Shown here in pieces: positions 8,847-12,544 of a stretch of 39,719 nucleotides of DNA (positions are counted from its first letter, which is position 1; every line of letters begins with the position of its first letter). The translations under genes were made by a program, and so were the position numbers. The DNA comes from Gammaproteobacteria bacterium (lineage in GTDB: Bacteria > Pseudomonadota > Gammaproteobacteria > Pseudomonadales > Azotimanducaceae): positions 1 through 39,719 of the forward strand of contig JAFIFL010000007.1 in the NCBI GenBank assembly GCA_020832055.1, read 5' to 3'. The notes below the pieces were generated by a model, which had not been told where the DNA came from, ran no database searches, and worked only from the letters and a program-made list of their open reading frames with translations.

Positions 8847-10082
8847 TCAGCTGTAACGTGGCGCAGCCCGGCTTTCGGCGCTGTCCTTCCTGGCGGCGTT
8901 CAGCGCCCACTGAAGGTCGGCGAGATAGATGTCGGCCACTTCGGCATGGAACGGCGACAGCATCAGGTGTAGCCCCCGCGGTTCGGTGGTGACACCCGTG
9001 AACCAGCCCCGCTCGTAGAGCTTCGCCCACACGGCGATGGGGTCCACTTCCGGGTGGCCGAAGGCCATGAGGCCGAGCTGCGGGCGGCCCATGATTTCGA
9101 ACCCGAGCGATTGCGCGCCCGCTTCGATGCGCTCGCGGGTATCGGTGACCAGCTTCTGCTTCGCCCGATAGCCCGCTTCGCCGAGGAAGTTCATGACCGC
9201 CCAGGCCGCCGCAATGGCGCCACCCGGCCGGGTCCCCGCCAGCGTCGGCGTCGTCATCTTGCCGCCGGGCCAGTCCGAGCAGTGAAACATCATGTGCTCG
9301 CGCAGGGCTTCGCTGCGGAACAGGACCGTGGACGCACCCTTGGCGCAGTAGCCGTACTTGTGCAGGTCCGCCGACATGGAGCGGACCGCCGGAATCTCGA
9401 AATCGAACGGGGCGATATCTGATCCGTTCATGCGCACGAACGGGGCGAGATAGCCGCCCACGCAGGCATCCACATGCAGCCAGACTCCCTTGCGTTCGGC
9501 CACTTCGCCGAGTGCTGCGATTGGATCCATCAGGCCGTAAGGGAAACAGGGTGCGGAGCCCACCAGCATGAGGGTGTTGTCGTCGATGGCGTTTTCCATC
9601 GCTGCCGGGTCAGCCAGCAGCTCCCGGCACGGCACGCGGCGGATCTGAAGGTCCATCATCATCGCTGCCTTGTCGAACGCCGGATGGGCGGAGTAGGGCG
9701 CGACGATGTTGCCCTGGCCGCTGAGACCGCGTTCGGCTCGGGCGAAGTCCCGCGCGGCCTTGATCGCCATGGTGATGGAGTCGGTGCCGCCGGAAGTGAT
9801 GTTGCCGGCGGCGCCCGCCGGCCCATGCAGCAGTGACAGCCCCATGCCGATCACTTCGTCTTCCATCTGCTTGAGGCTCGGGAACGCCAGCGGGCCGAGG
9901 CCGTTCTCCGACATGAACATCGCGTAGGCTTCCTTCTGCACCTTGGCGACTTCGGGGCCGGCGTTGAACACGTAGACCGCGGTTTTGCCATCGCGCCACT
10001 TCACGTCGTGACTGCTGCGCTCCTCCATCTGCGTCTTCAGGGTCTGCCAGTCAGTGCCTTGTTTCGGCAGTTCCATGGTCAC
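8847..10082 (-). CDS. PLP-dependent decarboxylase/aminotransferase-fold enzyme (sphingosine-1-phosphate lyase/glutamate decarboxylase-like)
   Basis: GNITSGGTDSITMAIKAARD and PLP-lysine motif SADLHKYGYCAKG; GTG start at 10082 or ATG at 10076. Confidence 0.88.
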   Translation of the reverse strand: MTMELPKQGTDWQTLKTQMEERSSHDVKWRDGKTAVYVFNAGPEVAKVQKEAYAMFMSENGLGPLAFPSLKQMEDEVIGMGLSLLHGPAGAAGNITSGGTDSITMAIKAARDFARAERGLSGQGNIVAPYSAHPAFDKAAMMMDLQIRRVPCRELLADPAAMENAIDDNTLMLVGSAPCFPYGLMDPIAALGEVAERKGVWLHVDACVGGYLAPFVRMNGSDIAPFDFEIPAVRSMSADLHKYGYCAKGASTVLFRSEALREHMMFHCSDWPGGKMTTPTLAGTRPGGAIAAAWAVMNFLGEAGYRAKQKLVTDTRERIEAGAQSLGFEIMGRPQLGLMAFGHPEVDPIAVWAKLYERGWFTGVTTEPRGLHLMLSPFHAEVADIYLADLQWALNAARKDSAESRAAPRYS

Positions 10083-10257
10083 TACTCCCGTTCCGTCTGC
10101 TTTGCGCTGCCGTCTGCGACGTGCTTGATGACGCCGTCGACATTCTCAATCAGCAGATTGAACATCAATAGGGCCAAGAAGTAATGGGCTATGGGGTCGG
10201 ACCACGGTAAGTGGTTGATTGGCTTGAGTTGTGATCCTTAGGTGCGGCACCACGGAG

Positions 10258-10299
10258 CCTTAGATGTGCCATTTCGGGCCGGAAAACCGCACTCTAAGG
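10258..10299. repeat. Imperfect palindrome 1 (CCTTAGA...TCTAAGG)
   Basis: CCTTAGATGTGCCATTTCGGGCCGGAAAACCGCACTCTAAGG; arms match with small bulges. Confidence 0.75.
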
Positions 10300-10329
10300 C
10301 ATTGAGACGCGGAGGCGTTTCCGATTCCG

Positions 10330-10369
10330 CTTAGAGGCCCCTTTTCTGGGCGAGAAAAGCGCATCTAAG
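10330..10369. repeat. Imperfect palindrome 2 (CTTAGA...TCTAAG)
   Basis: CTTAGAGGCCCCTTTTCTGGGCGAGAAAAGCGCATCTAAG; same half-site motif as palindrome 1. Confidence 0.75.
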
Positions 10370-10392
10370 CCTTAGAAAAGCGCGATCTAAGG
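10370..10392. repeat. Short palindrome 3 (CCTTAGA-9 nt-TCTAAGG)
   Basis: CCTTAGAAAAGCGCGATCTAAGG; perfect 7-bp arms. Confidence 0.7.
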
Positions 10393-10528
10393 TTCAAAAG
10401 TACCAGTCGCCAACACGTTACGGTGGTCTGACCCGATCTATGATCACGGCCTCCCCCCAGTTTGGGGGATGGCCGTGCCAACCTGCCTGCGGTTCCATTC
10501 GAGCGGTTCACACTGGGTGGAGACCGGC

Positions 10529-12544
10529 ATGCCGAAGTTCATGATCTCATCAAGGCTCTTCATCGCCTTGCTCGTCAGTATGCTGCTCGTCGCATGCGGA
10601 GGCAGCAGTCGCGACGATCCGGCTGATCCGGCACCGCAACCCGACCCGGTGGCCACTCAGGAGATTGTCGTTTCGCCATCTCTCGGACGCATCAATCGGG
10701 GTATCGCCCGTGCGTTCGCACTCAACGGCGATGCGCTGAGCGATGCTGTCACCGTGGGCGATGATGGCACGGCCACTCTGGAGATTCCCGCCACCCATGA
10801 CGAACCGCTGCTGGTGGAAGTGGTCGGAGCCGATGACGCCGACTACTTCGACGAATCCGCCAACACCACCCTGCCTTTTCCTGCCGACCAGAGCCTGCGC
10901 GCACTGCTGCCGGGCCCGCGGGACGGAGTCGGTGTGTCGATTCTCACGGAACTCGCGGTGATTCTCGCTGAGGCGGCGGGCGAGACCATCGATCTGGAAC
11001 TGATCGAGATCGCCAATGAGCGGATCCGCGCAGCCCTGGCTGCGGACGTGGCGGATCTGCTGACGCCGCCGGTGATCGTCGATGGGGCCACCGCCGCGGG
11101 TATGCTCAGCGACGACGATGCAGGTCGCTTGGCTGCCCGCCTCGGCGCTCTGGCCATGCTGGCGGAAGGCGCGGCCACACCGGCACTGACCATCCTGAGG
11201 CAGCTTGCCGAAGACATTGCCGATGGGACCATCGACGGTGTGGGCCTGCAAGGCGTCATTGAGGATCTGGTCTACGACCGGGTGACGTTTGCCGCGGATT
11301 TTCTGGCCGCGATCCAGGCCTTCGCCGCCGCCTTCGGCACCGAGGAACTGCAGGCCCATGCCGCGAGCGTGACTCCTCCGCTTACGGCCATCGGCCGGGC
11401 CACGCGTCCCGGCGCGACGCAGTCTGCCACCATCAACCCGGACCTCGTCGGAGACTATCTGCTGACGTATTTCGAAGCCGCAGCCGGTGGTCCCTTCACC
11501 GAGGGCGAGACGGTCATGGTCATCGTCGGTGCCGACAACACGCTCCGGGTTGGCGAACTGCAGCTCGAAGACCCTTTCCACTTCGTTCAGGACGATGGCT
11601 TCGTGTTCGAATCGGAGATCAACTGGCGCGACGAAGCCACCGGTGTCATCTACGCCCTGAGCCTCAACGACACCGGTGTATTCAACGAAATCAATGTCGG
11701 TGACGGCAACCAGATCCAGCAGAACGGCTTCCCGCTCTTCCTCGGGCAGCTGTTCGAGGACGAAGGTGAGGCCGGCGACGAAATCGGTGCAACCACCACC
11801 GATCCGAATCTGATCGTTAGGGCCAGTTTCGAGGGCCTGGAAGCAGGCAAGCTTCAGGGCCAGGCCGATGGTGCCGGCGACATGGGTTGGGACGAGCAGG
11901 CGTGGCTGGATCTGAGCTTTGACGTGGAGCGGCCGGAGGTCGTGGATACATCGGCGAACCCGTTGATCTACGCATTCTCCGATGGCTCGACACTCCATGG
12001 TGGTGACCGGGCGCTGAAGTTCTTCGGTCAGGGTCAGCAGTCGTCCCCGTCCAGCGCCGGCGGCCGGCCCTTTGAGGAGACTTTCGACGACACCTTCTTC
12101 ATGGCTTTTCTCGTCCGCGTCGACAACATCCCGTCGGGCTTCTCAGTGAGTTCGACCCTGGCGCTGCGACCCAACAGCTTCGGGGGCGATACCATCAACG
12201 TCGGTATCCGATTCACAGGTTTCAGTGCTCGCCTGGCCACCGACATCGGCGTTCAGATGGGTTTTGGACCGGCGATCGAGGTGGGCGAGACCTATCTCGT
12301 GGTCACGCGCCTGGCGAAGGCCGGCGGCAGCACCCGTTTCAATCGCATGGACATCTGGGTCAATCCACCGTCCATGGATGTCCCCCCGGATGAGCCGGAT
12401 CTCACGCTGCAGGAGAGCAGTTCGCAGCAACCGACTCGACTCGATCAGCTCAGGCTGCAGAATGAGGGGCAGCCGACGCAGATCATGCTCTACGATGAGA
12501 TTCGCTTCGCAGGTAGCTGGGCTGGCCTGTTCCAGGAGCCGTAG
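10529..12544 (+). CDS. Large secreted lipoprotein of unknown function
   Basis: Signal peptide with lipobox (LLVACGGSS) then a ~650 aa acidic extracellular sequence. Confidence 0.8.
   Translation: MPKFMISSRLFIALLVSMLLVACGGSSRDDPADPAPQPDPVATQEIVVSPSLGRINRGIARAFALNGDALSDAVTVGDDGTATLEIPATHDEPLLVEVVGADDADYFDESANTTLPFPADQSLRALLPGPRDGVGVSILTELAVILAEAAGETIDLELIEIANERIRAALAADVADLLTPPVIVDGATAAGMLSDDDAGRLAARLGALAMLAEGAATPALTILRQLAEDIADGTIDGVGLQGVIEDLVYDRVTFAADFLAAIQAFAAAFGTEELQAHAASVTPPLTAIGRATRPGATQSATINPDLVGDYLLTYFEAAAGGPFTEGETVMVIVGADNTLRVGELQLEDPFHFVQDDGFVFESEINWRDEATGVIYALSLNDTGVFNEINVGDGNQIQQNGFPLFLGQLFEDEGEAGDEIGATTTDPNLIVRASFEGLEAGKLQGQADGAGDMGWDEQAWLDLSFDVERPEVVDTSANPLIYAFSDGSTLHGGDRALKFFGQGQQSSPSSAGGRPFEETFDDTFFMAFLVRVDNIPSGFSVSSTLALRPNSFGGDTINVGIRFTGFSARLATDIGVQMGFGPAIEVGETYLVVTRLAKAGGSTRFNRMDIWVNPPSMDVPPDEPDLTLQESSSQQPTRLDQLRLQNEGQPTQIMLYDEIRFAGSWAGLFQEP

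What the first reader, a model, noticed from the sequence alone, without database searches (positions are those of the whole stretch)
10193..10434. MITE-like element made of terminal inverted repeats plus multiple copies of a TTAGA...GCGCTTTTC half-site
Ends carry related inverted repeats (GGGTCGGACCACGGTAAGTGGTTG versus GGGTCAGACCACCGTAACGTGTTGG). Inside, at least five copies of a ~16-nt motif (TTAGATGTGCCATTTC, TTAGAGTGCGGTTTTC, TTAGAGGCCCCTTTTC, TTAGATGCGCTTTTC, TTAGATCGCGCTTTTC) alternate in orientation, giving three palindromes, and a sixth degenerate copy (CCTTAGGTGCGGCACC) sits near 10238. There is no ORF. This is the organisation of a non-autonomous transposable element or REP cluster. 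The GGGGTC-GACCAC termini could be recognised by a REP-associated (RAYT/Y1) or other transposase in trans (inference).
Basis: partly seen in the sequence, partly recalled or inferred. Interest (0 to 1): 0.7.

Follow-up and report, generated by a model that had tools for sequence, protein, structure and literature searches.

The report
RAYT-linked two-unit mobile repeat
A 243-base non-coding stretch between two genes is a miniature mobile element made of two inverted copies of a 108-base repeat; the same repeat flanks genes for a REP-associated (Y1) transposase in this genome and in distant bacteria, so it is probably a passenger of that enzyme family and belongs to a little-studied branch of the bacterial REP/TIR repeats.

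Summary
Window 10193-10435 is a head-to-head dimer of a 108-bp unit (10193-10300 +, 10328-10435 -). A profile built only from Alcanivorax/Alloalcanivorax units finds both window units (E 3e-13, 1e-10). The genome holds about 35 units; all five congeners carry them, 53 other relatives none. Two inverted units flank a RAYT (Y1/HUH transposase) gene in this genome, and the motif flanks RAYT homologues in gammaproteobacterial, desulfobacterial and other genomes (0 of 364 control windows). Near-identical recent copies end 2-14 nt outside the terminal motif, without target-site duplications. It is a non-autonomous dimer, probably mobilised in trans by a RAYT. The known kind is the TIRtron/TIRYT of Di Nocera 2013. 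Differences: the RAYT clade has YIDLNM instead of the class-2 Y---NP motif, no detectable C-terminal HTH, and the internal "palindrome" lacks compensatory pairing. The window copy is diverged and probably inactive. Mobilisation is inferred, not shown.

The parts
10193..10435 (.). Whole element: two inverted 108-nt units with a 27-nt centre
   Evidence: TIR pair; unit matches at both halves
10193..10300 (+). Left unit
   Evidence: leave-out profile E 6.8e-19; Alcanivorax/Alloalcanivorax profile E 3.1e-13
10328..10435 (-). Right unit
   Evidence: leave-out profile E 7.9e-17; Alcanivorax/Alloalcanivorax profile E 1.4e-10
10193..10210 (+). Left terminal motif GGGGTCGGACCACGGTAA
   Evidence: exact in C15 and C136
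10418..10435 (-). Right terminal motif CGGGTCAGACCACCGTAA
10237..10253 (+). Degenerate half-site (CTTAGGTGCGGCACC..), left unit
   Evidence: sequence, position conserved in unit alignment
10259..10275 (+). Half-site CTTAGATGTGCCATTTC, left arm of left dyad
10282..10298 (-). Inverted half-site, right arm of left dyad
10330..10346 (+). Half-site CTTAGAGGCCCCTTTTC, arm of right dyad
10354..10369 (-). Inverted half-site (CTTAGATGCGCTTTTC), arm of right dyad
10375..10392 (-). Inverted outer half-site (CCTTAGATCGCGCTTTTC), right unit

Best explanation
The element is a non-autonomous dimer (REPIN- or MITE-like) of a 108-bp RAYT-associated repeat unit. Shown: fixed anatomy; many dispersed copies as dimers and solo units; the same units on both sides of a RAYT gene in this genome; the same arrangement in distant bacteria; presence/absence at an orthologous site for a sister copy; recent duplicates whose identity stops next to the terminal motifs, with no target-site duplication. 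Inferred: a RAYT of the YIDLNM clade recognises the unit, nicks DNA just outside GGGGTC with its HUH/Tyr active site, and copies or moves the dimer as single-stranded DNA during replication, acting in trans. The window copy matches no other copy closely (72% at best), so it is probably an old, inactive insertion.
For: Same terminal units around RAYT gene L034:369-1127 and a second RAYT beside a dimer. 52 versus 4 terminal motifs. Units in 6 of 6 genomes of the genus and 0 of 53 other relatives at E<=1e-4. Motif 5' of 22 of 33 and 3' of 24 of 31 RAYT homologues, both in 19, against 0 of 364 control windows. Same dimers, 216-242 bp, in Alloalcanivorax/Alcanivorax. RAYT model closest to TnpA-REP 4er8. 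Copies 89-98% identical with identity ending 2-14 nt outside the motif. C17b dimer absent at the orthologous site in two congeners. No target-site duplication in 40 dimers; pyrimidine before GGGG at 74 of 80 ends.
Against: No biochemical link between this RAYT and the unit. Window copy is diverged and single at high identity. The dyad lacks covariation, unlike hairpin REPs. Unit/RAYT co-occurrence among relatives is largely one genus, so it is not phylogenetically independent; G028 has a 46% identical RAYT but no detected unit. Some RAYT homologues lack the motif.
Confidence: 0.85

Rival explanations
1. Classical MITE: a deletion derivative of a DDE-type insertion sequence, mobilised by cut-and-paste on its terminal inverted repeats.
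For: TIRs, size, no ORF.
Against: No target-site duplication in 40 dimers, 0.95 versus 0.70 +/- 0.17 for shuffled flanks; identity of recent copies runs 2-14 nt past the TIR; the gene found between such TIRs is a Y1 RAYT.
Confidence: 0.05
2. Static host element: the units are protein-binding or chromosome-organising sites kept by the host (as proposed for some REPs), with RAYT association a relic.
For: Fixed box spacing over 108 nt across families; RAYT neighbourhoods are syntenic among congeners, suggesting vertical inheritance.
Against: Recent dimers in unrelated flanks and presence/absence differences; copy number varies 13 to 61 among congeners.
Confidence: 0.07
3. Structured RNA or regulatory leader that happens to be repetitive.
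For: Strong fold, z -7.3.
Against: No Rfam match; no covariation in the dyad; the two units of a dimer are no more alike than random units, 0.51 versus 0.51; the element lies between divergently oriented genes.
Confidence: 0.02

Closest known systems
TIRtron / TIRYT and their dispersed TIR repeats (Di Nocera et al. 2013, PMC3733652)
   Same: RAYT-like gene flanked by long TIRs instead of GTAG REPs; TIR with a GGGGWSAS-type motif (GGGGTCAG fits); TIRs also dispersed as singles, dimers and groups
   Different: GGGGTCGG variants miss one position of GGGGWSAS; a defined 108-nt unit with internal half-sites is not described in the text read; most published TIRYTs have a C-terminal HTH (PMC6006769), not detected here. 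Published figures could not be viewed.
REP / REPIN / BIME with RAYT (Nunvar 2010 PMC2817692; Bertels and Rainey 2011 PMC3116915)
   Same: Units around the RAYT gene in inverted orientation, dispersed solo units and inverted doublets, single-copy vertically kept RAYT
   Different: Unit is 108 nt rather than 20-40 nt, has no GTAG tag, and its dyad lacks compensatory pairing
IS200/IS605 insertion sequences (IS608, ISDra2)
   Same: Y1/HUH catalytic fold; no target-site duplication
   Different: Those have subterminal hairpins and a Y---Q motif; here TIRs and a RAYT-type protein with a C-terminal extension
MITEs of DDE insertion sequences
   Same: Small, non-coding, terminal inverted repeats
   Different: No target-site duplication; cognate enzyme is Y1

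Membership tests
TIRtron/TIRYT-associated TIR repeat (Di Nocera 2013) | RAYT-like gene flanked by TIRs rather than GTAG REPs | tested here: met
   C15 RAYT between inverted units 1126 bp apart; both sides in 19 homologues
TIRtron/TIRYT-associated TIR repeat (Di Nocera 2013) | TIR motif GGGGWSAS | tested here: inconclusive
   GGGGTCAG copies fit, GGGGTCGG copies (including the window's left end) differ at one base
TIRtron/TIRYT-associated TIR repeat (Di Nocera 2013) | TIR repeats also dispersed as singles or dimers | tested here: met
TIRtron/TIRYT-associated TIR repeat (Di Nocera 2013) | RAYT binds and cleaves the unit; movement depends on RAYT | not testable with these tools
   needs biochemistry and genetics
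TnpA-Y1 subclass 2.1 / RAYT group 1 (Quentin 2018) | C-terminal HTH-type domain (Bac_DnaA_C, HTH_23, HTH_28) | tested here: not met
   0 of 31 homologues match such a Pfam model
TnpA-Y1 class 2 (Quentin 2018) | Y---NP catalytic motif | tested here: not met
   YIDLNM or a close variant; N124 and M125 invariant in 31 of 31
TnpA-Y1 / RAYT superfamily | HUH motif and catalytic tyrosine in a Y1 fold | tested here: met
   H60, H62, Y120 invariant; Y1_Tnp in 31 of 31; 4er8 top structural match. NCBIfam REP_Tyr_transpos below its cut-off
Classical REP/REPIN | 20-40 nt palindrome tagged by GTAG | tested here: not met
   unit is 108 nt with CTTAG boxes, no GTAG tag
Classical REP/REPIN | Two units in inverted orientation forming a mobile doublet | tested here: met
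   dimers and their recent duplicates
DDE-type MITE | Target-site duplication of fixed length | tested here: not met

The most novel reading that the evidence does not exclude
A separate RAYT clade (YIDLNM motif, no recognisable HTH) uses a 108-bp, multi-box target with fixed spacing, read as sequence boxes and at least partly as double-stranded DNA rather than as a REP hairpin, and has spread it as dimers in several lineages, with the same gene-flanking arrangement in desulfobacterial and other genomes. This would be a RAYT recognition mode not described so far.
Probability: 0.3. Interest if true: 0.65.

Novelty: new variant of a known kind. Interest (0 to 1): 0.48.

Why it matters
RAYT target recognition has been worked out for short GTAG hairpins, while the TIR-type branch has been left without a well-defined target. 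A fixed 108-nt unit, found around the gene, as solo copies and as dimers, and present in a named strain (Alloalcanivorax marinus NMRL4), gives that branch a concrete substrate to test. It would also explain a class of unannotated intergenic repeats in these bacteria.

Tried and rejected
Rfam gave nothing. RNAalifold on 25 units found no dyad stem, only 2 pairs in the terminal motif, and the forced dyad showed no covariation, so a structured-RNA reading was dropped. Fold-back between the two units was tested through left/right similarity and not supported (only four dimers). Target-site duplications were searched and not found. The 61 and 110 matches include self-matches of the dyad on the opposite strand; about 35 full-length units are counted in the own genome, and the later sequence-only model gave 37 and 61. 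The pair L270 is a repeated stretch without the terminal motif and was not used. The TIR sequence gave no relevant paper; only two papers on this topic use TIRYT or TIRtron. Exact empty-site breakpoints could not be read because intergenic spacers are too diverged. The third Y1 gene of the genome (C258) is another RAYT kind without such units and was set aside.

Full report
WHAT IS THERE. Window 10193-10435 carries terminal inverted repeats of 27 nt (78% complementary) 193 nt apart and several internal inverted half-sites. It folds far better than shuffles (RNA z -7.3; DNA z -5.8), has no ORF of 100 aa or more and no Rfam match. It lies between a pyridoxal-dependent decarboxylase gene on the minus strand (8847-10082) and a divergently oriented gene of unknown family ending at 12544 (no Pfam or NCBIfam match).

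COPIES IN THE GENOME. GGGTCNGACCA occurs 52 times against 4 for the reversed pattern. Inward-facing pairs define dimers of about 238-278 bp on contigs C17 (two), C66, C77, C95 (two), C136 and C158, one of about 344 bp on C15, and other longer or shorter pairs. One pair, 1126 bp apart on C15, encloses a Y1_Tnp gene (L034:369-1127 minus). A second RAYT gene of the same clade (C136, L053:1126-1866 minus) lies next to a dimer. Solo units also exist.

THE UNIT. Twenty-five units align over 108 positions with a single one-base gap column: GGGGTCRGACCAC, AA at 17-18, TTGATT near 23-28, a half-site CTTAG.. at about 45, then CTTAGA-N7-TTTT and the inverted AAAA-N7-TCTAAG ending at about 106. A second size class has about 11 nt more between the terminal motif and TTGATT, so the dyad starts at 76-77 instead of 66. 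The dyad is conserved as boxes: the outer and inner boxes match in most copies, but the seven positions between them pair in only about 24-52% of copies, and the structure shows no more pairing than shuffles (64.9% versus 66.4%).

VALIDATION. A profile built without the two window units finds them at E 6.8e-19 and 7.9e-17. A profile from Alcanivorax/Alloalcanivorax units alone finds them at 3.1e-13 and 1.4e-10. The reversed window gives nothing better than E 1.9.

DISTRIBUTION. With the combined profile (R2) all six genomes of the genus carry units (37, 61, 13, 17, 24, 15) and none of the 53 other family and order relatives does at E<=1e-4; Infernal's stricter filters applied there. Alloalcanivorax marinus NMRL4 and an Alcanivorax MAG have 38 and 43 GGGGTCGGACC against 9 and 6 controls, many as inward pairs 216-242 bp apart, and these pairs have the same box positions.

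THE ENZYME. Homologues come from gammaproteobacterial, desulfobacterial and a few other records, mostly MAGs. In 33 of them the motif lies upstream in 22 (18 of them 106-129 nt from the start codon), downstream in 24 of 31, and on both sides in 19; 0 of 364 control windows have it. Of 24 loci checked from the broader RAYT search, only three contain the motif, and one of those is the genome's own clade member. The predicted structure (pLDDT 83) is closest to the REP-associated transposase 4er8, then IS608 and ISDra2. HUH residues and the tyrosine are invariant, but the motif reads YIDLNM rather than the class-2 Y---NP, and no HTH model matches in 31 proteins.

MOBILITY. Two dimers on C136 are 98% identical in unrelated flanks, others in congeners about 89-95%; identity stops 2-14 nt outside GGGGTC. 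Dimer C17b is missing from the orthologous intergenic region in two congeners. In 40 dimers (a few sharing an end) no target-site duplication is seen (0.95 versus 0.70 +/- 0.17), and the base before GGGG is a pyrimidine at 74 of 80 ends. This fits single-strand Y1 chemistry and does not fit a DDE MITE; the chemistry itself is inference from the known TnpA-REP and IS200/IS605 enzymes (PMC8266576).

CONTEXT OF THE WINDOW COPY. Its best other copy is only 72% identical over 105 nt. In congener G001 the homologues of its left and right neighbours are 7.4 kb apart with no unit detected in the fetched stretch, so the copy lies at a synteny breakpoint. It is probably old and inactive.

KNOWN OR NEW. 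Di Nocera et al. 2013 described TIRYT genes, TIRtrons and dispersed TIR families with a GGGGWSAS motif, and Quentin et al. 2018 placed most of them in subclass 2.1 with a C-terminal HTH. The finding works like a TIRtron derivative. It differs by the long fixed unit and by the enzyme signature, so I class it as a new variant of a known kind. I could not see the published figures, so an identical TIR may already be drawn there.

Noticed in passing
window 10445-10477: Near-perfect hairpin CACGGCCTCCCCCCA-GTT-TGGGGGATGGCCGTG just outside the element and upstream of the divergent gene.
   Followed up: no
window 10093-10453: Synteny breakpoint: the homologues of the genes left and right of the element are 7.4 kb apart in congener G001.
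   Followed up: partly
L109, L119, L123, L141 upstream of the RAYT start: In relatives the 5' unit's dyad ends in TCTAAGG/TAAGGAGG directly before the start codon, overlapping the likely ribosome-binding site; self-regulation of the RAYT is conceivable.
   Followed up: no
L259 (contig C136) 2659-2924, 7316-7581, 8444-8709: Cluster of dimers beside the second RAYT gene; two are 98% identical and 1128 bp apart.
   Followed up: partly
L187 (G004:C333) 607-997 and 2260-2634: Two near-identical composites with three units each (two forward, one reverse), 89% identical over about 418 bp.
   Followed up: partly
L131, L136, L192, L195, L197 (congeners): A second RAYT lineage (about 50% identical) flanked by, and sometimes repeating in tandem, GGGGTCGGACCARATCAA / GGGGTCGGACCAATTCAAG with a different interior.
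   Followed up: no
own genome units, all: Two spacing classes (66 and 76-77 nt from terminal motif to dyad), differing by about one helical turn.
   Followed up: partly
L120 (Methanococcoides MAG JAIORD01): A RAYT of this clade with both flanking motifs in a record labelled archaeal; horizontal transfer or binning contamination.
   Followed up: no
L052 (contig C258) 54-704: Third Y1 gene of the genome, a typical REP_Tyr_transpos (above the NCBIfam cut-off) without these units; its own repeats were not sought.
   Followed up: no
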